Shown here: one piece after another, positions 13,725-63,800 of the stretch
Layout: the number at the start of each line of letters is the position of its first letter
How positions within the stretch are numbered: position 1 is the stretch's first letter
Assembly: GCF_035083965.1 (NCBI RefSeq)
Contig: NC_089723.1
Location: forward strand, 930,001 to 994,000
DNA: 64,000 nt
Reading direction: 5' to 3'
From: Branchiostoma lanceolatum
Lineage: Eukaryota; Chordata; Leptocardii; Amphioxiformes; Branchiostomatidae
Position numbers and translations under genes: made by a program
Notes under the pieces: generated by a model
Seen by the model: only the letters and a program-made list of their open reading frames with translations
The model's database searches: none
Told to the model about the DNA's origin: nothing

Positions 13725-13826
13725 ATGAGAATATTTAGACATCTTTTTAGATCAAATGTGCTTCCAGACAGCTCACTGTTTGTTGGAGGGAAGTTTGCGG
13801 CTTGCACACGGAGAGAAATTTGCAAT

Positions 13827-16800
13827 ATGGCGCTTGTAAGAAAATGTCGTCTGCTAGGTCTGTATAGCAGAAGACTAGCGCACATGGCGAGGACAGCACA
13901 CCCGACTTGTTCCTCGCACAATATCAGCCTGTTTACCTCAGAATTTGCGAAACAGAACCATCCTAGAGGTGTTTTTGCACGTTTCTCAAGCTCTATCCAC
14001 GGGTGTGGGTTCGACAGCACGATCTTCGCGCTGTCCTCGGGGCACGGGAAGTGCGGGGTGGCGGTGGTGCGGGTCTCGGGGCCACACGCGTCCTCCGCCG
14101 TACGCCGGCTCACCAGGCGCCCGGTGCTGCCCGCGGAGAGACGAGCGGCGCTGAGGAGACTGTACGATCCCGCCGGAGAGCCGCTGGACAAGGGCCTGGT
14201 CATCTGGTTCCCAGGTAGGTCAGCGCGTTTGGAGGGTTACATCTGATATGAAAGTATGAAGACATTTTTTTTAAATTTTCATTCCTTTGATGAACGTGAG
14301 CCTTCATTCCATTATATAACATTATGGTGATTTCTGTCGTCAGAAAAACAAACAAAAGAAAGGACATTATCTGGCGATGACTTAAAGTTGCCAAACTCGC
14401 CATTAAATGAGATAACAGCTAGAACTTGAAAAAGGACTAAAACTGCACAGAACTTTGCAAGTACAACATAACATTTAGTAGCTTTGGCGACTCTAGGAAG
14501 ACATATTTGCTGTCCTACTATGTATACAAGCAAATTCGTCCCAGAAGTGCCACGGCTAAACATGAAGGAAAAGAAAGTAAAAGGTGTTTGTTTGTTTGTT
14601 TTGTTTGTTTGTTTTGTTTATTTTTATTTTACCAGGGGAGTCATATCGCCAGCTGGCGTTTTTCAATGAGCCCTGGGGGGGAAATCCCCAAACAAAGTTG
14701 TTTACATAAAATAACAAGTAACAAAACATAATGTGAAGTAAAATTGGTATGAAACCAAAGTAACTTAGATAACATATCAAACAAAACATAATATTACCAA
14801 ATATATACATTAACATCATATACTAGTGACAAAATATAATGGAATGAAATGTACAGTTTGTGTTGTTTCCTTTTCGTCCATGCAGGTCCGCACAGTTTTA
14901 CAGGAGAGGACAGCTGTGAGTTCCATGTCCACGGGGGCCCGTCTGTCGTCACCTCCCTCCTGATGGTGCTGGGGGGCATGGAGGGGCTACGGCCTGCAGA
15001 AGCTGGGGAGTTCACCAAGAGGTTTGTTTGTTTGTTTGTTTGTCTTTGTGTTCCTTCTGTGGTCCCATCCCTCCTGATGGCACGGAGAACATGGAGGGGC
15101 TTCGGCCTACCGAGGCCCTAGAGTGAAGAGGCTTGTTTGTCTGTTTGTGCACGGGGGCCCTTCTACTGTACTTTCTTTCTGCTTGTTCTGTAGGACAATG
15201 TATTACAATGGCTATAGGGAGAAGAGAACCAGACATATTCAGAAAATCATTTTTGGAAAGGTGTGTGTTGGGGAGGATATTTTTGTATTTTCTGGCAAAT
15301 GTCCATACTTTAATTTGACCTGTGTCCTCCAGGGCGTTCCAGAACGGGAAGCTTGACCTGACGGAGGTCGAGGGTCTGGCAGACCTGATCCACGCCGAGA
15401 CGGAGGCACAGCGGAAACAGGCGCTGCGCCAGATGGAGGGCGACCTCAGCAGGCTGTACTCTGATTGGTCCAGGAGATTACTGAAGGTAGGCTGTACTCT
15501 GATTGGTCCAGGAGATTACTGAAGGTAGGGCCACCTCACCAGGCTGTACTCTGATTGGTCCATCAGTAGACTGTACTCTGATTGGTCCAGAAGATTACTG
15601 AAGGTAGGGCCACCTCAGCAGGCTGTACTCTGATTGGTCCAGGAGATTATTGAAGGTAGGGCTACCTCAGCAGGCTGTTCTCTGATTGGTCCAGGAGATT
15701 ATTGATGATAGGCTGACCACAGCAGGCTGTAGTCTGATTGGTCCATTAGCAGTACTCCAATTGGTCCAGGAGATTGTTGAAGGTAGGGCAATGTTAGTTG
15801 GCTGTACTTTTAGTGGGTCTTTCAGCAGGTTGTACTGATTGGTCCATGTACTGGTATTTAAAGTGTAGCAGTTCACAGTTGCATGTGTTGGGAATATAAG
15901 GTGGTAGCACATGCTAGTTACTCATGACGACTTATGCTAACAGACAGTTACTCAAGCACCTGGATATTATCTTGAAACAGTCGGACCTTTCAGACAGCAT
16001 CTGCTGTGTTTTGTCAGTGACTAAGGATAGGTCTGAAGAATCAGGTTTTATACCAAAACTCTGAATTGATATGTTGATGAAATTAAGACAATTTAGGATG
16101 GGTCAATTTAGGACGGTTGCTGATGACGTGTGATTTTACCGTTGCAGTGTGTTGCCAACGTGGAAGCTTACATCGACTTCAGTGAGGATGAGAACATTGA
16201 GGCCGGTGTGCTGGATGATGGTAAGAAAAAATCATCCTAGACTCTTACAAAAACTTTCCTCAACTTTGCCAGAAATTGCTAATCTCCAAGCAGATCTATC
16301 TGTGGCAAGGCAGTATCAAAAGGGCCAACCAGTATCAAAAGCCACCGGAGGCTTTGAATTCTCGTCGGCCCTTTTGATACTGCCTTGCCACGGATAGATT
16401 TGCTTGGAGATTAGGATATTGTAGCCTGACTCGATTCTGGATTTGTAGCACCTTTATGTAAAGATTCTTCATCTTTGCTCACAATGATATGATGTCCACA
16501 TTAGGCCCTTAGACAAAAAGGAAGAAACATGAAAGAAGAATGTGTCTGAGTGTACTTCCATTATGGTGAGAGTGGCCAGGTTTTCCAGCTTTTGTTTTTA
16601 AAAATATCACACAGAAACCAAGACTTGGACAAGATGACATCATATATTCGTATGAAGGTTCATCTGTTACAGTGATCAACATAACAAGAGTTTTACTCAT
16701 TTTTTCCATATACAAAGGACTGGCCAAAATCTTGTTGGGAGTGCTTTATATTGTGTACAGAAATAACATGTAAAACTCTCATTAGATGACATCATGTTCC

Positions 16801-23686: not shown

Positions 23687-26600
23687 TCACATGGGCGCAG
23701 CCACCTGAACTCCTTCCTCCACCCCAGGCATGCCTGCATCTGCTAACAGGGAAGACAAAGTTAGATACCCAAAAATTCCTTCTGTTTTTCCGAAGTATTG
23801 TCTGGGCTAACAAGCAAATCACGATTTCAGATTCAAGAAAGAAAAGTCGGATGAGATATCACGTAAAACAATGGCGTACCATGCATCTGTACATCTCCCT
23901 TCTCCTGGTCCTCTGGCTCCTCATCATCTTCTTCCTCCTCTTCATCATTGTCATTGTCATCGTCATCTTCGTCCTCACCCCCATCTATGTCATCACCATC
24001 CTCCTCACCTTCATCACCCTCATCACCATCACCTGTCAATGCACCATCACCACGGTTACCACCACCACCATCCTCCTCATCACTGTAATCCTCCTCATCT
24101 ATCCCAGCATTCACCGCCCTATCTACATCACCTTTAGCACCGAGCACATGTTCGTCAAGCCTGTCATAGTCAGCATCATCACCCACCAGTCGTGCATCAC
24201 CCTGCTCATCCTTGTAATCATCATCATCATCCAAATTATCGTCATCATCATCCAAATTATCATCATCATCATCCAAATTATCATCATCATCATCCAAATT
24301 ATCATCATCCATATCATCATCATCATCATCCTTATAGTCATCACCAGCATCCCCATCACTCTGTTCCTCGTCCTTTGCTACCCGGTAACCCTGATCATCC
24401 CCCTCCTTTACTTTCACCACTTTCCCGCCATTGTCATAGAATATCCCATCTGCCTCTCCCTCCTGCTCCTTGTCCCCCTCCCCCCCGTGGTTCGAGTACC
24501 CCCCCTCCCCCTCGGACAGGTTAGTGCCGCCACCCTGCTCACCATCACCCCCCTGCATGTCCAGGTCTCTGTCGGCGTCAGCGACCTGCGGAACGATCTG
24601 GTTGTCATGGTAATACTCCTGCGCCCCCTCGTTCTCCTCCTTGATGATCTGCTGGTTCTGCTCATCCGCAGCCTGCTCGTCGTCGGGGATCTCGTTGTTG
24701 CCGATGTGGTCTTCGTCCGCACCTTCATCATCCTCATTGTACTCAACATTGTCTCCGTCTCCACGACCTCCTGTAAGAAAAATGCTGTCATTGCCTGGCA
24801 AAGATAGCTACTATTAATACAGGGTGGAACACACCAGTACGGAGATGGTAACAACGAATGCTAGGTTTCACAGCTGTATCAGAGATGCCACAAACACCAT
24901 GTATCTGCTGACTGGGTGTACAACTCTTCACTTGTTACATCGTTACCTGGCATAGATGGTGATTAAACTATTACAAGGTAACACACGTCACCAGTTCAAA
25001 GGTAGTGAAGTGGTCTTGTGACTAGGGTTTTTATATATGGTTCTGGGTTCAAATCCCTTGCAGGCCCCTATGTTATGCCCTTGGGAAAGGCACTTTACAC
25101 CAATTTCCTCACTGGGCTCGGTACTGAAAATGAGTACCTTAGGCCTCGATTAGGGACGTCCTTTTGGATGGGACGTAAAGTCAGAGGTCCTGTGTTTGAG
25201 TAGAGACACCCCTCGAGCATGTTACAGAACCCAACACACTTATCAAAAAGAGTTGGGGTCCATCCCGGTGTGAGTGGTTGAAACCTTAATCTCACACAGC
25301 TTGTATTTACTGTACAAAATTGGTTTTTTTTAAAAAGTAAAGTGGATTCATTCCTCAAGCTAACCCACATCTTTCACACCGCAGTGTTCCCCTCAGTAAG
25401 ACATCTGGAGCCGTGTAGTTCCCGTTTCCCGGCTTTAGATGTCTTACTGAGGGACTGCGGTGTGAAAGATGTTTGTTAGCTTGAGGAATGAATCCACTCT
25501 ACTTACTATAAAAAACTGGTTTGTTTACCTTGCTGCAGCTCCTCTCTTATTAAAAAGAGTTGGGATCCATCCCGGTGTGAGTGGTTGAAACCTTAGCCTT
25601 ACGCAGCTTGTTCTTACTATACAGAACTGGTTTGTTTGTTTGTTTGTTTCATTGGGATCTACATTAGTGTAAAATTTTTTAATAATCTTACGCTATTCTT
25701 CCTGAAGTCCATACATTAAATACATTGAAATCAAAATACAAGGAAGAAAACATATACAAATGTTATGACCAAATTCAAATGTGATACACGATATCTTCAA
25801 TTGACATGTACAGACTGTAATGAAAGTTTGTTTACCATGGTGCAGCTCCTCCCCGTTGTCCTCCCCAGCGTGCCCCCCCTCCAGATGCTCCTCCTGAACC
25901 AGCTCATCTCCGACATGTTCTCCTAGAACCCCCTCCTCCGCAGCATGACCCCCCTCAAGGTGCTCCCCCTGCTCCTCGGCTGGACCCCCCTCCTCTGCCC
26001 TCTCCCCTGCATCACCCCCCTCCTGGAACATGGTGTCCTTAGCCTCATCCTGTGGGGCAGGTGTGGACAGGTGAGTACAGGTACATACAGGTGAGTTATA
26101 GAATAGACAAGTTTTAACAGGCTAGCTTTTCAGCCCTCCTAACTTACAGTCCAAAGAGTCTGAGTTACAGAATTTTTTTAGAATAAGAATCTATCCTAAA
26201 CACTGTCAACTACGCTGTTAAAAGCATAGCCTAAAGAACTAGCTATTCCATTAACTATCCATTCCATTCTAAAGAAATAGCAATTCCATTCTAAAGAACT
26301 AGAAATTCTGTTCTAAAGAACAAGCCATTCCATTCTAAAGAACTAGCCATTCCATTCTAAAGAACTAGACATTCCATTCTAAAGAACTATCCATTCCATT
26401 CTAAAGAACTAGCCATTCCATTCTAAAGTACTAGCCATTCCATTCTAAAGAACTAGACATTCCATTCTAAAGAACTATCCATTCCATTCTAAAGAACTAG
26501 CCATTCCATTCTAAAGAACTAGCCATTCCATTCTAAAGAACTAGCCATTCCATCTAGAGAACTAGCCATTCCATTCTAAAGAACTAGCCATTCTATTCTA

Positions 26601-32600: not shown

Positions 32601-35600
32601 ATAGCCAGTATAACAACCATTCGGCGTAACACACCAGCCTAGCAGGCACGCGGCCAGCAGCAGCTGGTTATGTTACCCTGAACGGCCTGTCACACCTAGT
32701 CTTTGCACATCTGACTGCAACCGTTCTTTAAAGCTATCTAGTGAGGATGCTCCTATTGTACTTGATGACAGTTCCATTCTACTATCAATGGTCGGAAAAT
32801 ACGAATTTTTGAACAGAACAACATCAACTATAAATATAATATAGTTAAACACAAAATCGTCAAAGATAACCAGTGGCAAAAATCTGACAACTTTTTTTGG
32901 TAGTTTTAAAGAAAATTTGGAGTTAACAATACAGGGCTTACGGGAACAGGTCCTTCACTGTAATACTCTAAGTCTTAAAACTTTTGTCGTTGTTTTACTT
33001 TTGCGGTTTTCATGGTGACCTCTCAGCTACAAATTCATGACAACATAAATATGCATTATCAAATATTAATAATTAAGTCATAAATTCAAAACATGGCTAA
33101 AACCTCCTTTTCTGACCTACCTCGAAATCGAAATAAAACAACGCGAAAGTAAATGGATCTGGCCTGGGTGCCATCCCTTTTTCTACCGGGGGCTCCTACA
33201 CTTGCTACTTAGTGTTACATGGCGAGTGTAGGGGCCCCCGATCGAAATAGGATGGCACCCAGGCTAAAACGAATTGACAAGTTGCACATGTACTTGCATG
33301 ACCAGTGTGTGTCTGTGACGCTGATATGTAAGGCCAAAGTGCAGCTTATGTGGCCAGTACAGATGAATGCTATATGTTATTGGCCATGACTTCGCCTGAC
33401 ACCACAGCCCAGGTTCAACATGTGTTACTGATGACACATCTGCACCTGATAAGTCTTGGTTACAGGTATCTACAACTTACAAGTCTCCAGTCTGGGAACC
33501 ATTCTTGTTAGTGCTGTGTACCTAAACTCTGGACCTAAGGCCACACCAATTTGATTTCTTGGTTAACAGAATTTTTAAAAAAAATGCTAGATTGCAAAAT
33601 CAACAGAATCTCAAAGGAAATTTTGTACTTTGGTGCACACAGTTTCAGGGAGTGAACAGGGTCAGGTGCAAGTTTTCACACCAGCCTTCTGTTTTCATGA
33701 TTTTTTTTTTATACAAAGTTTAAATTTTAAAATTTAGATCGTGAAATTTGCACTGTAAAAAGATGAAAACATTGCTATTTTTGTGTTTAATACTGATTTT
33801 TTTGTTAACTACTGACTGTATATAATTTTGTATGTACGTCATGAATGTTTTTAAAATTGTATGTCAACTTTATGTCAACATGGAATTTAACATGTGCCAT
33901 GGGTTCAGGTCAGGACTTGAATCCACACATGAACCTGAGCATGAGTTTATGCATGCAGCACTCATCATCGTATGCTTACAATCATTCCAGTTCTCACTCA
34001 CTCACCACAGACAGACACAGCTACATAATCAAACCACTTGAAGGAGTAGACAAACATGTTTCTTTCCTGTGTCAACACATTTGTCTTCAGATCTAGATGT
34101 TTTCTAAAACTTGTATCAATGACAGTTCTACTTCTAGAGAGTATCTAAAGGGTTCTCACTTCTCATGGAATGATTCCTATAACTTAGCATAAGTTATAAC
34201 TAACCAAATACATTGTATGGGTTACACTATAGAACAATGAATGAACTTTTGTGCTTCAAATCTGAGGCTAATTTACTAGTAGTTGCCAGTGAATTTCCAC
34301 CCTGATTTGAAAACTGGTTGTGTCTGTATGTACAGATTTTAGTTTTTACCACCAAACCAGGGCAGAATTACTCTTGTCATGTAGGCCTGTTTGTCTTTCA
34401 AAGGAGTTAGCCTGTTACTTTTTAGTCAAGGAAAACTGACCGCTCTACGCCACTGGATTTGAGTTGAGTTCTGTGTGTCTGTAACACGACCACCCATTAC
34501 TGGGTAAACATTACAACAGGAACCACTGTGAATCGTGGCACCATTAATTACAATAAATCTGTCCTATTCTCCTTTCAGTAGCCATAATGCTTCCTGTTCC
34601 ATTTCAGTTTTTCTAGGAAGAACAAGTGTAATTCTTTTAAGTCTTGACTGATCGATGAATAGTGGGACCAGAAAACATTTCTACTGGGCTATGATTATTG
34701 AATTAAATTGAATTATTTGACTAACGGCAAGGTTTTTAAGGATTGTTGAACGAAAGAAGTTTCAAATTGTAAGTTGTTGTGGGACACGATGAACTGTGAG
34801 ATGGTTTACAATTCAGTATGCTGAAAATTTACACAAAAACATAATTTATGACTTGTCTGATACATATTTAGGAATTTAATATCTTGCTTTCTTCTTCATT
34901 TCAAAACATTTTACATATCTGTATGTTACATGTACCTTTACATACAACAAAATAAAAGGTTTGTTAGTAATGTAACTGACATTTATAATGAAAATTCACT
35001 TCCTAGAAAAGGTGCCCTGTTCAGTGACCTGACCAGTTTTCGTTAACAAGAAGCAGACTTGGTTTAAAAAAACGAACAAAAAACAACAGCTAATTGATTT
35101 GAAACCATACAAAGAGAAAACAACTAACACATTTTAGACAAAAAATCGAAGTGAAAATTATGTCATCCTCGCCAAGTCTGCCAAACGTAACGTCTGCGGG
35201 TTTAATTGCCCCAGGCGATATTTCTGTTTATCACACGATCCATGTCCGGCCAGGTGACGTGTCAGTCGGTACGCATTGAAAATAAAACACACCTTTCCGC
35301 CTTACGTTTCACCAGGTTACCCACAAATTAACAATATGAACTATGCTGATTTAATAAAGTAACCAGTGGCAGATAGGAGTAATTTTCTCAGGCCGGTTGG
35401 GCAAGTTTGACGTCAGCTCCAGGCCGCCCCCCTCCCCACTCCTCTCTCTCCGCTAACATGTCTAACATCACCAAGCTCACCTTTTCTTGTCTCAGACTCT
35501 CCAACTGTTCCTGCGTATCCACAAGTTGCTGCTTGATGGTCCCCAGCTCAGAGTCTTTATTAGTAAACTTCGCCTTGCTGTCCTCCAGTTGTCTGTCCGT

Positions 35601-35837
35601 CTCCCGAACCCTCTGGATCAGCGCGTCGTTCCGGTTCTCCAGGCTGGTCTTCTTCAGGTTGTACAGCCGCAGTCTGTCCTCCAGGTCGCTAACGGAGTTC
35701 CTGAGCTCGCTGTTGGCGCTGGCCGAGTTCCAGTAGTTGTAGGCGAGGATGCTGATGACCACGAGCAGGGAGACGACCAGGAACGGAGGGGACCGGCCCG
35801 ACCGCAGGTAGCCTCGGCCATTGTGGGTGGACGCCAT
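23687..35837 (-). CDS. GOLM1/GOLM2-like: GOLM1/GOLM2-like Golgi membrane protein
   Basis: The exons, in transcript order on the minus strand, are 35837-35481, 32518-32464, 31885-31780, 31398-31259, 29750-29645, 28322-28180, 27819-27647, 26049-25836, 24770-23880 and 23739-23687. The phases agree throughout, giving 745 codons. The N-terminus NGRGYLRSGRSPP, a membrane segment at about 19-36 ending AYNYW, and the following coiled coil (about 40-215) match the GOLM (GP73/CASC4) family: type II Golgi proteins with a lumenal stem. I see no furin-type RxxR close after the membrane segment. Exons 6-9 form a Gln/Glu/Asp-rich tail with DNVEYNEDDEGADED and IPDDEQAAD, as in GOLM C-termini, but much longer than the 400-430 residues of the human proteins. 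A donor at 28155 would put exon 7 out of frame, so 28180 is used. A probable extra exon is listed separately. Confidence 0.85.
24219..24356 (-). repeat. Coding repeat: poly-Asp tract in GOLM exon 9
   Basis: The reading frame contains repeated NLDDDDD units (four in a row) flanked by YKDDDD-type sequence, residues about 575-620. The DNA is a (GAT)n-rich repeat, seen on plus as catcatcatccaaattat units. The open frame on the opposite strand across this region is a by-product of the repeat. Confidence 0.85.
25001..25290 (+). mobile_element. tRNA-derived SINE
   Basis: Box B gggttcaaatccc lies at 25045-25057, followed by a body with 'ttgggaaaggcactttacac' and 'atgagtacctta'. The tail is 'gttggggtccatcccggtgtgagtgg'. 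Its tail is repeated at 25545-25600, on the far side of the palindromic element at 25338-25505. A related minus-strand copy is at 30380-30525. It lies in GOLM intron 8. Confidence 0.75.
25338..25505. mobile_element. Palindromic MITE-like element (family shared with 38964-39122)
   Basis: Inverted ends of about 60 bp begin (gtaga)gtggattcattcctcaagctaac and include 'acatctttcacaccgcagt'. The copy at 38964-39122 in the creatine kinase gene has the same termini and the same internal 'cagatgtctta' block. These define a dispersed family. Confidence 0.9.
25517..25547 (-). repeat. Decayed copy of the GOLM exon 8 donor junction
   Basis: 'gtttgtttacc..g.tgcagctcctc' at about 25519 matches the true exon 8 end and donor at 25827-25850. 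On the minus strand it reads exon-like sequence followed by gtaaac. It is short, so a chance match cannot be excluded. Confidence 0.45.
26226..26708. repeat. Minisatellite, 22-bp unit, about 20 copies
   Basis: The unit is 'ccattccattctaaagaactag' in a head-to-tail array, with a few shortened or substituted units at the borders. It lies in the GOLM intron between exons 7 and 8 and is not coding. Confidence 0.95.
28485..28575 (+). mobile_element. 5'-truncated SINE (family of 9572-9806)
   Basis: It retains 'ggaggtgcctcgagcgcgtt', 'aacagcctcatt' and 'gggtacctactggctgtaat', which match the 3' part of the SINE at 9572-9806. The tRNA head is missing. Confidence 0.6.
28828..29040 (-). CDS. Probable additional (cassette) exon of GOLM, 71 codons
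   Basis: Between GOLM exons 5 and 6 the minus strand has an acceptor (ccacacacag) above 29040 and a donor GAGAA|GTATGT below 28828. The enclosed 213 nt are open in the frame demanded by exon 5 (phase 2) and leave phase 2, matching exon 6, so the exon can be included or skipped without a frameshift. The peptide (DQWEYPQENMSAPLLL...NVTGETE) has four N-glycosylation sequons (NAT, NTS, NQS, NVT), sensible for a lumenal stem. The open frame continues past the donor to 28692. No homologue is known to me; splice evidence is inferred. Confidence 0.5.
30380..30525 (-). mobile_element. SINE fragment (family of 25001-25290)
   Basis: On the minus strand it reads 'gaggtcccgtgtttgagga', '...gagcacgtaaaagaaccca' and 'catgccccggtgtgagtgg', the 3' part of the SINE at 25001-25290. 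It abuts the 107-bp array. Confidence 0.6.
30532..31258 (-). repeat. 107-bp minisatellite carrying copies of the GOLM exon 4 splice donor
   Basis: The array is nearly perfect, with exact 107-bp period. 'ccttacctagctgccctgca' occurs at 30611, 30718, 30825, 30932, 31039, 31146 and 31253. The last occurrence is the genuine 3' end and donor of GOLM exon 4 (exon boundary 31259). On the minus strand each unit reads TGCAGGGCAGCTAG|GTAAGG, so six intact donor copies follow the real one in the intron. Confidence 0.95.
32519..35480 (-). other. GOLM intron 1
   Basis: No exon is recognised. At about 32673-32860 the minus strand has a peptide, NSYFPTIDSRMELSSS then SSLDSFKERL, resembling the degraded C-terminal end of non-LTR reverse-transcriptase ORFs (low confidence). 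A palindromic element (33161-33265) and one end of the 21125-type element (33538-33575) are also here. Confidence 0.45.
33161..33265. mobile_element. Palindromic MITE-like element, about 105 bp
   Basis: Inverted ends of about 47 bp: left 'gcctgggtgccatcc', right 'ggatggcacccaggc', with 'gggggctcctacact'/'agtgtaggggccccc' inside. The termini resemble those of the element at 53139-53240 ('agcctgagtgtcatcctgtt'), so both belong to one broad family. Confidence 0.9.
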
Positions 35838-35867
35838 CTTGGAAATGTTACAGGGCACTGCTCATGC

Positions 35868-37659: not shown

Positions 37660-40600
37660 TTACAGGCCGCGGCCGTCGCCCTTGGGGATGAGCTTGTCGA
37701 TGCTGCGGCCCCGCTCCAGCTCCTTCTCCATGCGCACCAACAGGTCCACGCCGTCGATCACGGCCTGCACCAGCTGGACCTCCGAGGCGCCCAGACGGTC
37801 CGCGTTCGAGATGTCGAAGGTGCCGCCCACGGCAGCGGTGTCCACGCCGCCGGTACCGCGCTTCTGTAGACGCAGGGCCTTCAGGATGTTGTCAAAGCGA
37901 GGGTCCTGGACAGAACGAAACACAAACATCACCGTAACGGTCATTCTTTTCTTGTTACATTCGCAGATAAATGTGCATAAACAGGCTTATGTCATTCAGT
38001 TACAATTTAAAGAAAAACTACTCTCAAACCATGGGTACTGGACAGACAAAACACGCACACCATCAGAACTGTTATTCTTTCATCATTTTGTTTGCAGATA
38101 AAAATGTGCATACATGTCAACTTGATTTATGTGATTCAGTTACAATTGTACATTGGTAATAACAACATAGCAATGACTGCACAGTCTGGATAGGTTAAGG
38201 GCTAGACTCTGTACCTTGGACACCCTGGGGATCTTGACGTGAACTCCAGCCCTCAGGCCGGTGCCCAGGTTGGACGGACAGGTGAGGATGTAGCCCAGGT
38301 GCTCGTTCCACATGAACTCCCAGCCCTTCTCGTTAATCTGCTTCTCCACCTGTGGGACAACAGCACACCATAAATCTGAAACATCAGGACTCAGAAACAG
38401 CAGGATGGCACTTTTCAGGGAAACCAACTTGCAATTATATCTCATTCACACTTGACCTATATTGACATGTTGACGACTACATGCTCTGGCAAACGAAGAA
38501 AGGTGTGACTGTAATTGGAAACTTTTGGAGGGATCGGGAAATGATTTTAGTGGTGCAAACCCAATTTGGATTGGAACTCTTGTTGCTGCTAGAGCACGCA
38601 CAGGTTGTGAGTTTATTGTACACTTAACTTTACAACCACAGCTAAACAAGCAAAACTTAAATGAACACTTTGCTAAAACAACTGCTACCCTCTTATCAAA
38701 ATCATAGCTACTGTCAGTGGAGGGCCCTTAGGATTGCAAAAAGTAAACAAAATGTGGGGAAGATACCATCATCTTGAAATACCTTCAAAGAGCAAGGGTG
38801 TGGTATTGGAAAGGGAGCAAAACAATGTGAAAAACATCTCTACCAACACTTGTTGAAAAAAGGTGTTCAGATTTTCATAAATGACAGTTCAGCTGGTGGA
38901 AATTTGGAATTGAATAAAACTGATTTTTTAATATTGTGTGTAAATAGTCATAAAGGCATAAAATAGAGTGGATTCATTCCTCAGCTAACCAACATCTTTT
39001 GCACTACACAGGCTGTACAGGTCTAAACAGGAACTACAAACTGTATGCAGCTCCAGATGTCTTACAGAGGGATGACTGCAGTGAAAAAGATGTCGGTTAG
39101 CTTGAGGAATGAATCCACTCTACTTCATAATAGTCCTACACTTACAGTCACTTTTCAGGTCACACAATAGAAAACACAAATTTCACAAGTCAGCTATGCA
39201 CAGCACATGACGTATGTATTAGTGATACACAGAACATGTAATACATGTAAGTGATGCACAGAACATGTATGTGTGTAAGTGAAGGCAGTCGAACACCACA
39301 CACAGCACTCTTCTCACAGCAACAGTTTGGAGTTGGGGATGGAACATGAAGTAAAGAGAGAGGACTTACCTGCACACAAGTCTGGATCATGTAGGACTAA
39401 TAATGTGATATAAACTGTGTGGAGCAATTTGGAAGGTACAAACTTACCAGCTCTGGAAATTTTACGGAACTTCTCCACAGACCACTAACCAAGCAGCCTT
39501 GCATCCTTACCTTTCAAGATATGGAAAACTAATCTCCTTAATAACAGCAGAGACTCAGTCATACTCAAGGGCTCACATACAAACCACCAGCTACCTTTGG
39601 CTGGAGTGTACTTGATGCTGTAAAAACAATGCCTAAGTACGATACCTCAAGTCGGCGACAATTGTCACCTAACTTCCTAAGAACGATACCTAGAGTCAGC
39701 GTTAACTGCGACCTAAGTACAATACCTAGAGTCAGCGTTAACTGCGACCTAAGTACAATACCTAGAGTCAGCGTTAACTGCGATCTAAGTACGATACCTC
39801 ACTGAGTCCCTCCGAGAATCTACGGAAGACGCGCCTCATGTTTCCGCCCTTCTCCATGGAGATGACCCGGGTGTGGTCCTCCTCGTTCAGCCACACCAGG
39901 AAGGTCTTGTTCATGTTATGCCTGGGGGAAGGGGGACAGACCGTGCCGGGGAGGGGGGTACAGGTGTCAGTGGGGGGTGGGGGTGGAGGTAGACAGGGAT
40001 GGTATGGCATGCAAAGGAGGTAAAGGACTAGCTACATACATGTAGGAAAGAAATTGTATCTAGATACAGAAATGTAGTAAATAGGAAAAGATTCAGGCAT
40101 CTACTAGTAATGGTACATAGGAAAGAAACAGAAGAAAAGAAACAGCACAAGAATCACTCTGGTTCTTGAAGATGTACAGTAGCATGCAGGGAGGATGGAG
40201 AAGCTGGAAAAAAGATGCTAATGAAATGCAAAGGATGTTATTGAAGTGATAGAAAGAAAGTTGAAAAAGTATTTTTCATTTATAATGATGGTAGATCTAA
40301 CCTGCAAAAATAGATTTGAAATGAGAAAGGTGATAATTATGACTCATTATGAGAATGGGGAGAAAGCGTGGTTTGTAGCTTAGAACAGCCTGCTGAGGGG
40401 ATAGACAAGTAGACGTGAGGGGGTGGGGTGGAAAGTGGGAAGGAACGCTGAGGGGGGAGGGGGGCACAGATGGCACCAGTCATGTCTCACCCTACCTTAC
40501 CAGCTACCTAATGTTCTAACACTGTAAACTACAGGCACAGCAAACCTCCATACTTATCCTGTGGCAGCAAGTGTGCAAGCCTCTGCACAAAGTGGCAAAC

Positions 40601-43600
40601 ACTCCAGTGGACACACCACACAACTCGGGGGGAGGGGGTTGGAGAAGGGGTGGGGGTTACCTGTGAGAGGCCTGTGCAGAACCTCTGGAATACCCGTTGC
40701 ATGTTCCCACCCTTTTCCATGGAAATGACCCTTGTGTGGTCCTCTTCGTTCACCCAGACTAGGAAAGTCTTGTTCATGTTATGCCTGAGGGCAGGTGCAA
40801 AGGGGAGGTTCATTCATGGTGAGGGGGGATATAGGGTGCAGAGGGGGGGTTCATTCATCCTGCTGAGTGGGTGGGATGAGCTGCAGTGCTACATGCTGGT
40901 GGGAGGAAGTCAGAGATCATGTGGGAGAAAACAACTGAGACAGACGTACACAAAGGTGTGTTTGTTTGTGTGTTGGTATGTTTGTGCATTTGTATGTGTG
41001 TCTGTGTGTTTCTTTGCTTATACAATTTATCTGTGTGTTGTGATGCAGGCAAGGAGTTGTTGGATGAAAGTTTGTGAGTAACACTGTTCTGTGAGGTGAC
41101 CTGTGTGTTGTTGAGTGTGTCTGCAAGTACAAAAGTGAACCCAGTAGAAAGATGCATGCTGGGACAGGGTGGCGGACAGTCGGACAGTCGGACAGGCGGA
41201 CAGTCAGACAGCGACAGTCTCCTGTGAAGACAACGTGTGGGTTTAAACGGCGCGGAAACAAAGCGGGGAAGCGTGACTCTACCTCCTTGAGGCCGGTGCA
41301 GAAGCGACGGAACACCCCCGCCATGTTGCCGCCCTTCTCCATGGAGATGACCCGGGTGTGGTCCTCCTCGTTGACCCACACCAGGAAGTTCTTCTGCGCG
41401 TTGTGCCTGCGTGGGGAGGGGGGCAGGAGTCCTTCATGTGAGATCAGGGTATTTTATATACAGGACTACAGTTGTATGTTTGCAGTCTGATTTTTGGGAC
41501 AATTGTATCCTACTCTGGGAGAAACAAAACTAAGTGATCAGTAGAAAGAAATCAACTCAAGAAAGATGATCTGCTGGGGGAGAGGGAGGATCACTTTGAA
41601 AAAAAAAAGTTTGATACATTATTTAAAAATGATTAAGGACTAGGGGTGGATACCGGTTTGCTGGACCTGATTCAGACCTTTATAACATCCAAGAACCGAG
41701 TCCAAAAAACCTGAACAAAGTACAAATATATTTTTCTGTTTTGTTTGACAAAAAGTGTTTTGAGTTTGCCCTCTGACAAAAAAGGCATTTAAAATAAGTG
41801 TAACATTCAAATATCAAACACTGGTTTATCTTGAAAGTTTTCTCACCAAGAAACTTTTATAATTATAGTCGTGCGTGTCAGTGTTGATTCTCTATGCTTT
41901 ATATTGGCCTAATAAAACAAAACATCAACTGGACAGGATTAGGTCCAGGTTCAGGTTAGGACCTGAACCTAAATCTCTGGACCTAAACTTGGACTTGGAC
42001 CTTATTAAGCCAAACCGGTATCCACCCCTTTTAAGGATTAAACAAATCATTATCGTTCTAAAGTATAATAATAATATTACTATGGCTAAGAAATCACAGT
42101 AAAACTTGCTGGAGGTAACAAGAGAAGGAATCATGCTAAGTACAGACTTAAGTTGTTCAATTGACACAGTCATTCTAAACACTATCATAACACATTTTAG
42201 CATGAAAGCTCAGTCTTTTTAAGTTAAAACATAGTCGAATCCTTTTACATAACATTTAACAATCGCATGCCTTTAAACATCACAACAATTATTTTCTTTC
42301 TATCTGAAATGTTTCTGTTCATTCCCTCCCATTCTTCATACAGGCATTCAAATCAGGGACGGGTCCTGGAGACAGATTCAAATGTAAGGCTACGACCCAA
42401 GGCGCAGACCGATCACCACCTGCAAATATATCATCAACTCTGTACAAATTAGGTCTATGCTCAAAGTGCTAAGCTGCACCATCGCACGCACCAGATGCCG
42501 CGGCCGTCGGGCCAGTCGCGGGCCATCCCGGCGCAGGTCAGCAGCGGCGAGACCGGCTTGTCGAACAGGAAGTGGTCGTCGATCAGCTGCTGCTGCTCGT
42601 CGTCTGTCATGTTGTTGAGCGGGTAGTACTTCCCCTCAAACTCTCCCGCCAGGTTGGCCAGGCCGTCAGACACCACACGCTCCACCTATGGGGGGAAGGG
42701 GGTAGGTATGACAGTTTATCTCTCATTTCATTGATCTGATTATATTATCAAAAATTCATTTTTCTACCACTTTCAAGAATCTTTGAATACAATTCGAGTT
42801 TCTTGACTTTCTGTCCAGCAGTCAGTATACATATATATATAAAGAAGGAGAACTTTATTGCGCAACTATTGTAACTGGTACAATGTATGGCAACTTACGT
42901 ACATGACAGGAAATATTGCTAATTGTTAGTTGTAACGTCTAATGACTTTTTTGTCAATCAACCATCCACAAGTGTCAGTTGCTAATGTCAATGGCGACTG
43001 TAGATATCTCTCTCCAGAATGTTCTATTTTGGGCACAGGACCTCCAGTTGGCTCTGGTGACCCCTAGCTCTCTAAGTGTATTGAATACTGTACTTTTATC
43101 AATGCCTGCATTATGTAATTATCCTGATAGTTTCAGCAGGACAATGCCATGAAACCATCTGTAACCCCGTACCTCGCGCCTCTCTGCCCTGGTGCAGGCT
43201 GGCGGCAGGCTCAGGCCGCGGATGCTCCGTCCGGTACGCACGCGGCTGGACAGCACATACTTGTCGTCAAAGTTCCCCCCACGGATCTTGGTGAAGTCCA
43301 GGTCGGTGGGATGCTTGTCGTTTGGCCCGTACCCGCCGTGCCGCTCGTCAATAACGGCATCAAACAGCTCAGCGAATACCTGAGATGGGACAAAATACAA
43401 AGTCATTTACACACTGTACACTTACAGAACATCCCTTAGGTTTGTTACAGAGGACAAGTCTTTCCTGGATTGAAATTACACTGATGTATCCACTACCTGT
43501 ATGTTTACAAATTTGTTTCTCCAAGTCCAAAGACTTGGCTTGACTTGAAACTTTTTATCCTTTGATAGTACATGTACAATGTACGTCCTTTTGAGATGCT

Positions 43601-45465
43601 AAAAGCTAGCGGTAAACATATGTTAAATGGTTTTGGCTATTGCTCGCAAAGATACTATTAGCATCTTATGCCAAATGGCAGTTACTTTTAGGTCCTGCTG
43701 ATTGATGCAGATGACAAAATATACCAGCAAGGTTGTTGACAATGATTAGTGAATTTGACAATCTTTGATAATATTGTGAGAGAGGCAAAAAGCCTGCCCA
43801 CTTACAATAATTTCTAGCTATTTCCTAGATCAAGTAAATTTTGGACCCCCTAGCAGCTTCCTTTGGTAGTGCAGTGAAGCCTGAGAAGTTTGGGACTGAC
43901 CTCGTATGACTCCTCGTCTCCCGCGACCATGCCGACGGTCTTGATGAAGGGGTGCCCGGGGTTGTCCACCCCCGTCTGGATGCACTGGTCCAGCGTGTAG
44001 CCGGCCGGCGTCGCCTTGTCCCGCAGCTTGGCGTAGATCTTTGGTGTCAGGTTACTCGCCATGATGTTGTTGTGCTTCTTCAAGTCAGGGAAGTCAGCAC
44101 TGTGGGGGGAGGGGGGCAGAAGCACGTTCAGGGGTTATTTTTGCTATTTTTGTTTATGATGGAAGCCCTCTACACCTGCTTGAGCTTTTCATGACTTCAG
44201 AACATGCAAAGAACGTTTCATCTTCCCTCATCCTGATATGTTACGCTTATTCTTAATTCCCTTGCAGCTGTCAATACTATTTTAAGTCTACTTTGTAATC
44301 GCAGTATGGTACAACTTATACCCAGCATCTTCCTGTCAACCCTTAACCTATGGCCCTTATCCTTGTCCTTTAACCCAAGCTGGTACGTATACCCGATGAC
44401 TACGTAGCCGCCATAAAATGCATAAAGCTCCTGTCCTAGCGTCAGGTGGGCCTGTTCTAGCTGCCCGCTTGTCTTCAGTGGTAGCAAGCTTGTAGTACTT
44501 GAGAAGCGACGTAAAACATTGGTGAAGCTGCCAAATGGATGTTATCATTGCTTTGTTAGTGTGTCTGGGGCTGAAAATCAACCAATCAATTAATCAATCA
44601 ATCATCAATTGCTGATGCCTGTGAATCTCTCTCCTGGATGTTCTATGAACATTTTAACCAGCTCCAACACTGGAAGTGTTCAACATATTTACATTTCTAT
44701 TCTAGCATGCAGACTAGTACAGTCTGATACAATATTCAACATCAAGGCATGCATGCACAGCACAGCATGACATGGGGTTTGAGATGTTATCAAATGAGTA
44801 ACAGTTACTACATTATGATGACCTACCTCTTGCTAAGGCTACCTGACCAGCTCAGTCCTTTCTGACCTTTGTCTTCCATCATTCATGTTTTTCTTTTGTT
44901 ATTAAATTGCTTCACAGTCAACATGCTTTTAAAGTCGACTTGCATTTTTATAACATGTTTCCAATAGAGACATCATTCTGTTGTCCATGTGTAGTTGCTT
45001 GTTTATTACTTGTCTAGGACACATTCTGCTACATTCAACTTGTTAAAGTTTTGTGAGGATGATTCTTGCCACAAAGACACAGTTTGCTACAGTTAATGTT
45101 TTGTGAGGATGATGTTTGCCACAGAGACTGTCACACTTGCCACAGTTTTGTGTACGTTGGTCGGTCTTACCTAGGAGGGTATCTTTTTCTGGCCGGTTTG
45201 ATGGGCGCAATCTCGGTGGCACGAAGCGTGCACGAGTAGCGCTGGCTGACAGAGCTGGTCAGGAAGCCCAGCATAAAGGCTACGACCAGCGGCACCGAGG
45301 TCCACAGGCACCGCGTGCACGTTCTGTGAACCACAAACCCACCACGCTTACCATAGAACTCTCGCCAATGCATACCGTGTGTGTGTGTGTGTGTACATAT
45401 ATAGGGTACACGTTCTGTGAACCACAAACCCACCACGCTTACCATAGAACTCTCGCCAATGCATA

Positions 45466-45499
<34 letters not shown>

Positions 45500-46526
45500 A
45501 TAGGGTGCACGTTCTGTGAACCACAAACCCACCACGCTTACCATAGAACTCTCGCCAATGCATGCCATGTGTGTGTGTGTGTACGTATGCATGTGTGTGT
45601 GTGTGAGTCACAGTGCATAGGGTGCACGTTCTGTGATCGCACAAACCCACCATGCTTACCATATAACTCTCGCCAGTGCATACCATGTGTGTGTGTGTAC
45701 ATATGCATAAGTTTGTGTGTGAGTGTGCATAGGGTGCACGTTCTGTGATCGCACAAACCCACCAAGCTTACCATAGAACTCTCGCCAATGCACACTGGTG
45801 TGTTTGTGATTGTACATGACCAACACAAATAGACTGGGCATGGTAAGTTTACATGGAATGGACACAAGGGTTGGTGAGGTTCATGGGAATATCTTACTGA
45901 GTTATGATTTATTGGTAGAAAAAAAATTCAGCGATGCATGATCTTTCATTTTCATTTGTCTTATCGTGTTAATCAGGCATGCGGCCGTGTGACCAGCTTC
46001 ACCTGAAATGGAGGGAGGTTGTACAAATGCACCAGTAATTTCAATTTTTAGTTCCTTGCCTAATACATATTACAGGTTTTCCCCACATTTCACTGTAGCT
46101 CAACACAGTCACGCACTGTCAATTAATGCAAGTGGTGGAATTACTGGCTGTTTTGACTATTTCTTCTACAATGACATGGTGGATCCATTACTGACACTTC
46201 ATTCTAAACTCAAGGAAACTGAGTGCGACTGATTATGAAATGTAGATGGATGGACATGGGAGTTAGCTATAGAGGGGAGGGAAAGGGTTGCGGGACTTAT
46301 GGAGGGAGATGGAAATGTGATTGGAAGAGTAATTGAGAAAGAAACAAACGTTATCATTTCTTAAACACACTGGATCATCTCCTTACCTTGGGGGATACAT
46401 TTTTCTGGCCCCGCCCACACGGGCGTCGACGGTCTGGTTGCCATAGTACCAGGCGGAGGCGGCTGCCACGCCCACTCCCCCGGCGGCGGCCAGCGTGCGA
46501 GCATTGCGAACGAAGAACGCTGACAT
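37660..46526 (-). CDS. CKMT: Mitochondrial creatine kinase
   Basis: Exons on the minus strand are 46526-46387, 44099-43901, 43379-43173, 42685-42492, exon 5 (one of 41406-41283, 40784-40661 or 39921-39798), 38349-38215 and 37905-37660. Each choice gives 414 codons, like vertebrate mitochondrial creatine kinases (about 417). The enzyme transfers phosphate between ATP and creatine in the intermembrane space. Visible marks are a Ala-rich presequence ([17 protein letters not shown]), [77 protein letters not shown], active-site Cys312 in [11 protein letters not shown], and [16 protein letters not shown]. The C-terminus is [12 protein letters not shown]. The exon 1 acceptor (46575/46576) shows a further untranslated exon upstream. 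Vertebrates have two such genes; one is seen here. Confidence 0.95.
38964..39122. mobile_element. Palindromic MITE-like element (family of 25338-25505)
   Basis: The left end is 'tagagtggattcattcctcagctaac' and the right end is its complement, '...gttagcttgaggaatgaatccactcta'. It contains the internal 'ccagatgtctta' block seen in the other copy. It lies in the intron between exon 5c and exon 6. Confidence 0.9.
39640..39797 (-). repeat. 36-bp minisatellite continuing from the exon 5c donor
   Basis: The unit on plus is 'acctaagtacaatacctagagtcagcgttaactgcg'. It is present about three to four times, the copy farthest from the exon being degraded. On the minus strand each unit begins with a donor-like gtattgtac (or gtatcgtac) preceded by 'gactctag', which resembles the exon end 'gactcagtgag|gtatcgtac'. 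Confidence 0.85.
39798..39921 (-). CDS. CKMT: Creatine kinase exon 5, copy c (alternative)
   Basis: The exon is 124 nt, with acceptor ccccag above 39921, donor gtatcg below 39798, and the same phases. It encodes (W)[16 protein letters not shown]... and ends [15 protein letters not shown]. It carries V to L next to the catalytic segment, and Ser replaces the Cys of RFC. The intron side of its donor is repeated as a 36-bp array (39640-39797). Confidence 0.82.
40661..40784 (-). CDS. CKMT: Creatine kinase exon 5, copy b (alternative)
   Basis: The exon is 124 nt, with acceptor cctcag above 40784, donor gtaacc below 40661, and the same phases as copy a. It encodes (W)[16 protein letters not shown]... 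and ends [15 protein letters not shown]. Over 21 codons from LVWV to GGNM it differs from copy a at 10 synonymous positions and at no amino acid, so its protein is under constraint. Codon choice is less GC-rich than in its neighbours. Confidence 0.82.
41283..41406 (-). CDS. CKMT: Creatine kinase exon 5, copy a
   Basis: The exon is 124 nt, with acceptor gcag above 41406 and donor gtagag below 41283, phase 2 in and 0 out. It encodes (W)[16 protein letters not shown]... and ends [15 protein letters not shown]. The [17 protein letters not shown] core, with the catalytic acidic residues of the family, is intact. Its ending LKE is closest to vertebrate enzymes, and it is the copy nearest exon 4. 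Confidence 0.85.
41642..42029. mobile_element. 388-bp non-autonomous element with terminal inverted repeats
   Basis: The ends are 'aggggtggataccggttt' and its complement. The inside has 'ggacctgattc.gacct', 'tataacatccaagaaccgag' and 'ggacctgaacctaaatctct' blocks. A second copy with the same ends and order is at 62561-62972. No coding capacity. It lies in creatine kinase intron 4. Confidence 0.92.
44220..44612 (+). repeat. Possible retroelement 3' end with short tail repeat
   Basis: The plus strand ends with '...gtgtctggggctgaaaatc' followed by (aatcaatc)-type repeats at about 44577-44612, a tail style common in LINE and SINE 3' ends. No reverse-transcriptase motif could be read, so the identity is open. 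It lies in creatine kinase intron 1. Confidence 0.25.
45171..45274 (-). CDS. CKMT: Alternative first coding exon of creatine kinase
   Basis: The minus strand encodes [13 protein letters not shown]...KPARKRYPP followed by AG|GTAAGA at 45171, leaving phase 2. Exon 1 (46526-46387) likewise ends in ARKMYPP plus AG and phase 2. Both therefore splice in frame to exon 2 and give [12 protein letters not shown]. The peptide is basic and hydroxyl-rich with one acidic residue, like a mitochondrial presequence. Upstream residues in frame are hydrophobic (SVPLVVAF), so an earlier start within the repeat array is possible. This is an alternative N-terminus inferred from sequence only. Confidence 0.6.
45312..45805. 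repeat. Minisatellite with embedded (GT)n, 5 copies of 91-117 bp
   Basis: 'cacgttctgtga' begins each unit at 45318, 45409, 45508, 45625 and 45737. Units contain 'cttaccatagaactctcgcc' and a variable GT microsatellite; unit length varies with the GT tract. On the minus strand each unit carries TTCTATG|GTAAGC (donor-like) and ggttcacag (acceptor-like). The array lies directly upstream of the alternative first exon. Long open frames on both strands are repeat by-products. Confidence 0.9.
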
Positions 46527-60800: not shown

Positions 60801-63800
60801 CAAACTAAATTACAATCAGAACCAACTTAAGTGCTTTCAATATCCATACAAACTCCTAAAATCCCTGTCAGATATTTGACAAAATTCTCCAAATTCAAAG
60901 ACTTCAGTTGATTAGCACAGTTTTGTTTGTTGAATGAAAGAGCTACAATTGTTATAAGATGGACCATTTCTCTGTGCAGATGTCCTGCATGAATCCAGAA
61001 GATGCACAGCTTTACAGCTACAGTAGATTTGGCCATTTGAGATATTTGTTCACTCTTGTCTTGAAAGTACAATCTATATTGTGGTGCGTGACAGTCATAT
61101 AACTGGTCTTACTAAGTTTTTCTCTAACAGCAAACCAATCTGATTACTTATATTTCTACCAGGAAATGTTTTTTTTACACAAAGGTAAAAAAGGTATAGA
61201 AGTCCATACTGGGGTTACACAAACCCACTATCTTTGAAGAAGAATTCTGATAAACAATGACTTAAACGGGCTCGACTCTATTATCCCCATGCTCCTTACA
61301 AGAGTCCGTCTTGTTGTTTTACTACAGTGCTTGACATAAAACCATATAACCAGCTTGACTTGTGTCCATCTCGTGTTAGTGTTTGACATATGCCCATCTT
61401 GTTTTGACTGACACATATCCATCTAACGTTAGTGAATGCAGTGCTTGACACATATCCATCTAGTGTTAGTGAGTGCGGTGAGTGACATGTGTCCATCTAG
61501 TGTTAGTGCTTGTAGTGAGTGACATGTGTCCATCTAGTGTTAGTGCTTGTAGTGAGTGACATGTGTCCATCTAGTGTTAGTGAGTGCAGTGAGTGACATG
61601 TGTCCATCTAGTGTTAGTAAGACTTGCCCAGTGATGACAGAAAGACGCGTTATGCTGAGGAAAGGCCCGGTGCCGTGGACAGATCCCCCAGTTTCCGTTC
61701 CACATTTCGCTCCAGTTTGCGTTGTTACAACTTTTCGTACAAACCTCCTTTCTCTTGATTTTGCTTCCTGGCCTTGGTTCTGTTTTCCCTGGTCCTAGTC
61801 TGCCCTACTGTTTTTGTGTTGGGGTCTGTTCCAGTGCTGAGGCAGTGGTCCAGTGAGCACACAACAAAATCAACTGAGGGCAAGGACACCGTCCATCTGT
61901 TGTTGTTGTGTTATTGTTGTTCTGTTTGTGTGCTGTTGTTGTCCCATTTCTTCGTGTGTTGTAGTGTTTTGTCGAGTTTTCAGATCTCACCCTATTCATG
62001 TACACTTGTTACTGACTCCCATTCTGTATGGTCCTATGTTTGCATGTTGTTTTTGTGTGCTATATTTTCCTGAACATGAAAGGCAACTATTTTAGGAGAG
62101 AAGTAACACGGCCTTAGCTGGTGCAGCACTTCCTTAACAACAACTGTTGGGTGAGGTGGAAATGGATAGCGTTTCTATCAGTTAGGAACTGACGATTACA
62201 GTTGGTATGTCAACGTATGAAGGAGGGGACTTACAGAAGGGATGTTAGGGGGTCCACCACCGCTACACAGATGCCATGGTGTTGGAAACAGCCGTGTCAG
62301 GGACAAAACTGCAGTGTAGGGCTTCATGTCGGATCCTGGTACTAACCCCCCTTCACGGGGCTCCCCATTGGTCCCCACAGGTCACATGAACGGCCCGTCA
62401 CGACCAGGCAGAGGAGGGTTCGGGAGACCCAGACACGACGGACCAAAGATCGGGTTAGTTGCACACTTGTCACAACATGCAAACACAGTGGAAAGCAATA
62501 TAGCTCGACAGTGAAGCACGTCTAGAGCAGTTGTAGGTAAACAAATGTTAGGTACAGGTTAGGGGTGGATACCGGTTTGTTGGACCTGATTCGGACCTAT
62601 ATAACATCCAAGAACCGAGTCCAAAAAACCTGAAAGCCAAAAACCTGAGTCCAAAAAAAACCTGAACAAAGTACAAATGTATTTTTCTATTTTGTTTGAT
62701 GAAAAGTGTTTTGAGTCTCCCTATGAGAAGAAAAGGCATATACAATGTAAAATAAGTGCAACATTCAAATATTGAATACTGGTTTGCCTTTAAAGTCTTC
62801 TCACCAAGAAAACTTTTACAGTCATGCATGTCAGTCTTAATTCGCTATGCTTACTATTGGTTCAATAAAACAAAACATGTCAACTAGACAGGTTCAGGTC
62901 TGGACCTGAACCTAAATCTCTGGACCTAAACCTGGACTTGGACCTTATTAAGCTGAACCGGTATCCACCCCTAGTACAGGTACACGGGTTTAGGTACAGG
63001 TCCTAAAGTACTTGTTCAGCAGATGGTAGATTTTCAATAAGGACAATAGCATGTTTTAACTGGCACAATATTTAATTGTGCTATGTCTTATATTTATGAA
63101 AACACAGTTGAAAATTTGACTCCAGCCTTGCAAATGTGTTTTATGTGCTGGAGTAGGTAGCTTTAAGCATGTCTAATCTAGGAAGAGAGTGCAAACTGCG
63201 AAGTTGAGAGAACTAGAGGCCTGCTCCTTATAACATTCTTTATTGAGAATCGCTTCTAAAACACTATAAAGCATCTGCATATGTATGACAATCAGCGCCC
63301 AGTCTGGTCAAGATTAGGTCCAGAAGTTTTACATGCTTTTTATTTGTTATTGTGAGATAGAGGAAGGTTTGTTTTTGCTCCTTGTTGTGAGTACTTAAAG
63401 GACATTTTTGTTCCCCCCCCCCCCCCTTCTGCAGTACGTTTAACCCAGATGAGATCAAGACAGAGAAAACATCCGACATCTGGCCCAACACTGAGTCAGG
63501 TGAGAGACTTTCCTGGTGTCTTAAAGATGTGTTCCGTTTAAGAAATCTTGCAAATTTCATGTTCATGTGTGCCCCAAAACATTTTTAGATTCTTGAGCAA
63601 GTTCACAGTTTGTCATTGCTTCTTTGGTGCTGGAAACACCCGCCTACAATTTGCACAAAAATCTCTCAAGATTTCAAGTTTAAGTATAGACAACTTGTAA
63701 TCTTGCATGGTAAAAAATGTCAGGCCTGAATCACAATCAAGCTAACCAACAATGTGCTAAAGCTTATGTTGCAGTAAAACTGGAACATTGCCTTGGCCAT

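What the first reader, a model, noticed from the sequence alone, without database searches (positions are those of the whole stretch)
39798..41406. Three mutually exclusive copies of the active-site exon in mitochondrial creatine kinase
Exon 5 occurs three times in tandem (41283-41406, 40661-40784, 39798-39921). Every copy is exactly 124 nt, enters in phase 2, leaves in phase 0, and has good splice sites. Because 124 is not a multiple of 3, using two copies or none breaks the frame, so only one can be used per mRNA. The [17 protein letters not shown] core is unchanged in all three, while copies a and b differ at 10 synonymous sites over 21 codons without an amino-acid change. Variation is concentrated at the two ends (HNAQKN/HNMNKT; LKE/LSQ/LSE; RFC/RFS). 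One gene could thus make three enzyme variants where vertebrates use separate CKMT1 and CKMT2 genes.
Basis: partly seen in the sequence, partly recalled or inferred. Interest (0 to 1): 0.9.

Follow-up and report, generated by a model that had tools for sequence, protein, structure and literature searches.

The report
Triplicated swap exon in creatine kinase
A lancelet gene for the mitochondrial energy enzyme creatine kinase carries three interchangeable copies of an exon holding key catalytic residues, of which the reading frame allows only one per message, so one gene can probably make three enzyme versions; this is a known kind of splicing in a gene where we saw no report of it.

Summary
The minus-strand gene is a lancelet-type mitochondrial creatine kinase (MtCK) with three 124-nt copies of exon 5 at 41406-41283, 40784-40661 and 39921-39798, all with GT-AG sites and the same phase. 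Only single-copy splices give an open 414-aa or 465-aa protein. The copies are old and constrained: dS is 2.0 (a-b) and 3.2 (b-c), and neutral simulation gives far more amino-acid changes. A Branchiostoma protein labelled isoform X1 carries a 5c-type exon.

New points. Copies a and c share a 44-nt identical tract, from gene conversion or a younger duplication. Copy c and the Branchiostoma relative have Ser where 117 of 117 other segments, and 114 of 117 in a second set, have Cys. The variable residues of the exon-5 helix lie on one face. Frame plus NMD explains exclusivity best; no docking/selector RNA pairing was convincing.

The CKMT1/CKMT2 analogy is weak: their consensuses differ at 2 of 42 positions here, and the copies mirror neither.

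Verdict: a real mutually exclusive exon cluster by sequence, a new member of a known kind. Use of all three exons is unproven without RNA.

The parts
46387..46526 (-). exon 1 (from ATG): presequence-like start [17 protein letters not shown]..., ends ...KMYPP
   Evidence: identical in P0008 over 46 aa. 5' extent not determined
45171..45323 (-). exon 1b, 153 nt, in-frame exon that can be left out without breaking frame (51 aa)
   Evidence: included in P0008 isoform X1 with 10 of 51 aa differences
43901..44099 (-). exon 2, 199 nt
   Evidence: one search placed its first base one too early
43173..43379 (-). exon 3, 207 nt
42492..42685 (-). exon 4, 194 nt; ends ...GRGI + TG, joins each exon-5 copy
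41283..41406 (-). exon 5a, 124 nt: [41 protein letters not shown]
40661..40784 (-). exon 5b, 124 nt: [41 protein letters not shown]
39798..39921 (-). exon 5c, 124 nt: [41 protein letters not shown]; Cys to Ser in the helix
   Evidence: P0008 carries a similar type
39632..39799 (-). minisatellite (36-nt unit, 39676-39799, with a diverged unit to 39632) running from the last bases of exon 5c into the intron, repeating its donor motif
38215..38349 (-). exon 6, 135 nt, with TCPSNLG
37660..37905 (-). exon 7, 246 nt, last coding exon with stop

Best explanation
A mitochondrial creatine kinase gene of a lancelet carries a three-member cluster of mutually exclusive exons. Tandem duplication of a 124-nt internal exon produced copies a, b and c (inferred from their similarity). 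Because 124 is not a multiple of three, any mRNA with two or three copies shifts frame into a premature stop 256 or 380 nt before the last junction, a classic NMD target, so only single-copy mRNAs make enzyme (frame shown; NMD inferred). Which copy is used is probably set by splice-site competition and tissue-specific splicing factors (inferred). All three enzymes keep the catalytic core. They differ in the turn before the NEED strand and on one face of the following helix, so the switch most likely tunes stability, oligomer or partner contacts and cysteine redox chemistry rather than the reaction itself (inferred).
For: Exact 124-nt copies with GT-AG sites, and 17, 18 and 17 of 22 pyrimidines before the three acceptors. 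Only the single-copy forms stay open, with either N-terminal version tested. dS 2.03 (a-b), 3.23 (b-c), 0.41 (a-c), with dN/dS 0.075, 0.037, 0.456. In neutral simulation, 5000 runs for each of 6 directions at the observed number of base differences, amino-acid differences as few as observed occurred at P 0.0002 or less, and a stop appeared in 50-63% of runs. P0008 (B. floridae x B. japonicum, 'isoform X1', cluster of 27 member sequences, 96% identity to the query) has a 5c-type exon with FSEGLSE: 3 differences from 5c, 6 from 5b, 8 from 5a. The exon-5 helix positions that vary (7 of 14) fit a 140-degree arc, P 0.0012 among all 3432 choices.
Against: No RNA evidence could be reached, so use of each copy is unproven. 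The a-c pair alone has dN/dS 0.456; its low synonymous divergence goes with a 44-nt identical tract. Ten of the 11 variable positions are also variable across the family (entropy of variable against constant positions, P 1e-5), as expected if much of the difference is neutral. The skip form's stop is only 41 nt before the last junction, so frame plus NMD may not clear skipped mRNAs. The source names P0008 'M-type-like'. I saw no lancelet protein with a 5a- or 5b-type exon (lists capped at 120).
Confidence: 0.78

Rival explanations
1. The three copies are all spliced in but are functionally near-equivalent; the differences are drift at tolerant surface sites, and the cluster is kept for regulation or by chance.
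For: Variable positions coincide with family-variable positions; the catalytic core is untouched; vertebrate CKMT1 and CKMT2 hardly differ here.
Against: The Cys to Ser change hits a position that is Cys in 117 of 117 other segments of one set and 114 of 117 of another, and is shared with P0008. The residues A and M at position 4 and L at position 12 occur in 0 of 117 segments. The helix changes cluster on one face, though plain surface exposure would do this too.
Confidence: 0.35
2. Only one or two copies are used to any extent; the rest are rarely spliced or on the way to becoming relics.
For: Copy 5c is the least family-like (L at 12 and S at 37 are each seen in 0 of 117 segments). Its donor sits in a minisatellite that repeats GGTATYG donor-like motifs, and all 4 decoy donors tested add in-frame stops. 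Copy 5b has GC3 0.714, against 0.837 for the upstream and 0.898 for the downstream exons.
Against: All three are open with intact sites and protein-level constraint; a 5c-type exon is the one used in P0008.
Confidence: 0.17
3. A docking-site/selector RNA structure, as in Dscam, enforces the choice.
For: Such systems occur in Drosophila clusters (PMC6071210, abstract and results section read). The strongest intron pair here, i5bc with i5c6, reached -44.4 kcal/mol against a shuffle mean of -38.0.
Against: For the six intron pairs, 1 to 9 of 20 shuffles did as well, so nothing survives six tests. The best i5bc-i5c6 pairing lies mostly in the middle of a foldback element that also occurs elsewhere in the window. 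I saw no docking site common to the copies.
Confidence: 0.1
4. Assembly artefact: allelic or repeated copies stacked by the assembler.
For: Lancelet genomes are highly polymorphic (recalled).
Against: Flanks are near shuffled identity (ungapped 100-nt flanks, 6 tests, two with P below 0.05: 0.0225 and 0.0445) and a-b and b-c are near saturation at synonymous sites, unlike alleles; P0008 from another record carries a 5c-type exon.
Confidence: 0.02

Closest known systems
Mutually exclusive exons of energy-metabolism genes: PKM, SLC25A3 (human), Pfk (Drosophila, three exons)
   Same: Tandem exons of an energy-metabolism gene of which one is used per mRNA (PKM and SLC25A3 named as mutually exclusive splicing cases in PMC5740500 passages; Pfk listed in PMC6071210).
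   Different: Here the exon holds catalytic residues of a phosphagen kinase and the core is unchanged. How the PKM, SLC25A3 and Pfk exons act was not looked up.
Insect muscle myosin heavy chain (Mhc)
   Same: One gene with exon clusters does what most other animals do with a gene family (PMC2257972, abstract read).
   Different: Mhc has more than one cluster and known isoforms. Here there is one cluster with no RNA proof, and the copies do not mirror CKMT1/CKMT2.
Mitochondrial creatine kinase (CKMT1/CKMT2 family)
   Same: The six best solved-structure matches by sequence are mitochondrial creatine kinases by their titles; both ATP:guanido phosphotransferase Pfam domains are found in the relative P0008.
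   Different: Three alternative exon-5 copies, and a 51-aa exon 1b between presequence and kinase domain that can be left out in frame.

Membership tests
Mutually exclusive exon cluster (criteria as in PMC5740500, passages read) | neighbouring exons of similar length, sequence similarity, same reading frame, usable splice sites | tested here: met
   three exons of exactly 124 nt, 93, 95 and 100 of 124 nt identical, same phase, GT-AG
Mutually exclusive exon cluster (criteria as in PMC5740500, passages read) | joint inclusion gives a non-functional transcript by frame shift | tested here: met
   all double and triple forms truncated, stop 256 or 380 nt before the last junction
Mutually exclusive exon cluster (criteria as in PMC5740500, passages read) | splice-junction reads for each exon bridging the others | not testable with these tools
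   no RNA-seq available; P0008 is one annotated isoform with a 5c-type exon
Steric or U2/U12 incompatibility type | donor to branch point under 50 nt, or mixed U2/U12 sites | tested here: not met
   introns between copies are 498 and 739 nt, branch points not mapped; no U12 donor or branch motif in 9 introns
Docking-site/selector type (Dscam-like) | competing intron pairings to a common docking site | tested here: inconclusive
   no pair clearly beat 20 shuffles; one species only, so covariation could not be tested
Mitochondrial creatine kinase | creatine kinase domains and closest similarity to MtCK | tested here: met
   Pfam domains tested on the relative P0008
Mitochondrial creatine kinase | mitochondrial import and octamer formation | not testable with these tools
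   presequence-like exon 1 only

The most novel reading that the evidence does not exclude
Splicing chooses between oxidisable and non-oxidisable mitochondrial creatine kinase: 5a and 5b keep, and 5c loses, a nearly invariant helix cysteine (equivalent to Cys254 of the muscle enzyme by its spacing of 29 from the reactive cysteine). The same exon re-sculpts one helix face, giving a three-state, tissue-set energy-buffer enzyme from one gene.
Probability: 0.15. Interest if true: 0.7.

Novelty: new member of a known kind. Interest (0 to 1): 0.48.

Why it matters
If all three exons are used, a lancelet gains creatine kinase diversity by splicing within one gene, on residues where vertebrate CKMT1 and CKMT2 barely differ. 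Three enzymes identical outside 41 residues would be a clean natural experiment on what the turn and helix next to the NEED catalytic motif do, and on the role of a cysteine that nearly all relatives keep.

Tried and rejected
Search of the window's own genome for the phosphagen kinase family: no genome is held.

Short-fragment protein search with the three exon-5 versions and flanks, to catch lancelet fragments with 5a or 5b: 290 of 312 candidates passed, 120 were listed, highest listed identity 85%, and none of the few named ones is a lancelet. The protein database is clustered at 90% identity, so other lancelet isoforms may be hidden inside the 27-member cluster of P0008; only its representative was seen. 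In one search, 7992 candidates were scored, 4196 passed and 120 were listed; P0008 was eighth by E-value but highest by identity (96%), and the only one named Branchiostoma.

Splicing-factor motifs (10 recalled patterns in 9 introns, 200 shuffles each): nominal excesses in the 5b-5c intron (TGCATG 2, P 0.035; GCACG 1, P 0.045; MBNL-like 4, P 0.045; YCAY clusters 3, P 0.020), in the exon 1b-2 intron (TGCATG 4, P 0.005) and of GGTGGK in the exon 1-1b intron (5, none of 200 shuffles; that intron holds the tandem repeat). With 90 tests I make nothing of them, but four in the 5b-5c intron is worth a look.

RNA pairing between introns: not convincing. Steric hindrance and U2/U12 incompatibility: not met.

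Seven bear on creatine or phosphagen kinase with lancelets or splicing (4, 5, 12, 19, 20, 40, 45), one on exon clusters in general (13), one on Cys254 (22), one on the octamer (55). Lists were complete for 4, 12, 19 (none) and 40; capped for 5 (25 of 1,005), 13 (20 of 149), 20 (15 of 21), 22 (20 of 25), 45 (8 of 445) and 55 (8 of 56). In what was listed I saw no paper on mutually exclusive exons in a creatine kinase. Subscription papers are not held, so this is weak evidence of novelty. PMC4167887 (passages) compares creatine kinase cDNA including Branchiostoma belcheri tsingtauense, so a lancelet creatine kinase sequence is in print; whether it is this gene was not checked.

Cys254: PMC4851218 (passages) lists Cys254 of mouse creatine kinase B among cysteines more oxidised in old nerve; PMC8448711 (passages) lists Cys74, 146, 254 and 283 of the rabbit enzyme and found only negligible alkylation of Cys254 by sulfur mustard. 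A redox role is a lead only.

The structure model is of P0008, not of the window's own spliced proteins; mean pLDDT 68, residues 1-89 below 50, so nothing is claimed for exon 1 or 1b from it.

One search used a wrong first base for exon 2, so its translations are out of frame; one search replaces them. A first CKMT1/CKMT2 comparison (11 U-type, 9 S-type; 1 of 42 positions different; all copies 34 and 33 of 42) was widened to 26 and 11, which is the one quoted.
Full report
Observation. I read the minus strand from 52 to 36 kb and rebuilt the gene: exon 1 46526-46387, exon 1b 45323-45171, exons 2-4, then exon 5 three times (41406-41283, 40784-40661, 39921-39798), exon 6 38349-38215 and exon 7 37905-37660. 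Each exon-5 copy is exactly 124 nt, starts after two bases of the W codon and ends on a codon boundary. Acceptors end in CAG with 17, 18 and 17 of 22 pyrimidines before it, and donors are GAG|GTAGAG, CAG|GTAACC and GAG|GTATCG. A translated search of the whole window with copies a and c found these three places at E below 1e-18; the next match was E 0.67. The finding is real.

Frame. With exon 1 alone the single-copy forms are 414 aa, with exon 1 + 1b 465 aa, all open to the natural stop. Every double or triple form stops early, 256 or 380 nt before the last junction. The skip form also stops early, but only 41 nt before the last junction, so by the usual 50-nt rule (recalled) it may escape NMD. 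[quoted passage not shown]

Age and constraint. Nei-Gojobori values: a-b dS 2.03, dN 0.15; b-c dS 3.23, dN 0.12; a-c dS 0.41, dN 0.19; the first two dS are near saturation. Ungapped 100-nt flanks are close to shuffled identity; two of six tests fall below P 0.05 (0.0225 and 0.0445). Neutral simulation (5000 runs for each of 6 directions) gave 17-21 amino-acid changes on average against 6-9 observed, P 0.0002 or less; the unchanged 17-residue core had P 0.0000 as printed. So the copies have been kept as protein. The a-c pair by dN/dS alone (0.456) is the weakest case. Copies a and c share a 44-nt identical run (shuffle P 0.00035) and 24 of 29 shared-residue degenerate codons against 18.3 expected from the gene's own codon usage (P 0.010), whereas a-b (16 of 30) and b-c (16 of 31) look independent. 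Either a and c are the younger pair or the core was converted between them. Yet b and c share the HNMNKT start (an 18-nt identical run) and GLS near the end, so the copies look like mosaics.

Another record. Of 120 listed proteins (of 4196 passing), the one with the highest identity, 96%, is P0008, 'creatine kinase M-type-like isoform X1' of a B. floridae x B. japonicum hybrid, a cluster of 27 members, eighth by E-value. It contains exon 1b and a 5c-type exon, [41 protein letters not shown]: 3 differences from the window's 5c, 6 from 5b and 8 from 5a. Outside exon 5, exon 1 is identical over 46 aa, exon 1b differs at 10 of 51, exons 2-4 at 3 of 201 and exons 6-7 at 5 of 126. With 10 of 51 differences in one exon the window is probably another Branchiostoma species (inference); if so, the 5c type predates the split. 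Whether the relative also has 5a and 5b was not seen.

The vertebrate parallel. Consensus of 26 U-type and 11 S-type sequences (picked by hand from the source names) differs at 2 of 42 positions here, both V/I; copies a, b, c match them 35, 35, 34 and 33, 33, 33 of 42. The three exons are not a splicing version of CKMT1/CKMT2.

Mechanism of choice. Introns of 498 and 739 nt between copies speak against simple steric exclusion, and no U12 motifs occur. Sixty-nt tile duplexes between four introns against 20 dinucleotide shuffles gave 6, 6, 6, 2, 9 and 1 of 20 shuffles at least as stable. I favour frame plus NMD with regulated splice-site competition. Docking/selector pairing remains open until several species are compared.

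Standing. It works like, and by the sequence criteria is, a mutually exclusive exon cluster, a known kind also seen in other energy-metabolism genes (PKM, SLC25A3, Drosophila Pfk). I saw no report of it for a creatine kinase in what ten searches of open-licence papers listed, several of them capped lists. The bold reading, a splice switch between cysteine-containing and cysteine-less MtCK, is not excluded and is directly testable.

Noticed in passing
45171-45323 and 45315-45817: Exon 1b (51 aa, hydrophobic [10 protein letters not shown] stretch) between presequence and kinase domain, present in P0008; exon 1 and exon 1b both end in a YPP codon run and both join exon 2 in frame. Its acceptor TTCACAG|AACGTGCAC lies at the end of a tandem repeat (period about 99-112 nt) with four more copies of the motif upstream, at most one mismatch in each.
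   Followed up: partly
39632-39799: 36-nt minisatellite begins at the last bases of exon 5c, so the GGTATYG donor motif recurs four more times downstream; each of the 4 decoy donors tested adds in-frame stops.
   Followed up: partly
38958-39128 and 25338-25501: Long foldback in the 5c-6 intron (38940-39140 folds at -95.3 kcal/mol, z -12.4); its end sequence recurs as an inverted pair elsewhere in the window, so probably a mobile foldback element.
   Followed up: partly
41642-42029 and 62561-62972: 388-nt stretch with 19-nt inverted ends AGGGGTGGATACCGGTTTG in intron 4, and a 412-nt stretch with nearly the same ends near the window end: likely small non-autonomous DNA transposons.
   Followed up: partly
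40660-39922 (intron 5b-5c): Four of ten recalled splicing-factor motif patterns are nominally in excess in this one intron (P 0.020-0.045 each, uncorrected).
   Followed up: no
13689-14246 (+): Open frame matching the N-terminal domain of the tRNA-modifying GTPase TrmE, Pfam E 8.8e-13.
   Followed up: no
3773-4282 (-): Open frame with a PDZ domain match, Pfam E 3.2e-06.
   Followed up: no
35388-35861 (-), perhaps on to 23833: Short N-terminal tail, hydrophobic span and coiled-coil-like stretch, resembling GOLM-type Golgi proteins (recalled, not tested; only a sub-threshold Pfam rod-domain match); very acidic open frames further on the same strand may belong to it.
   Followed up: no
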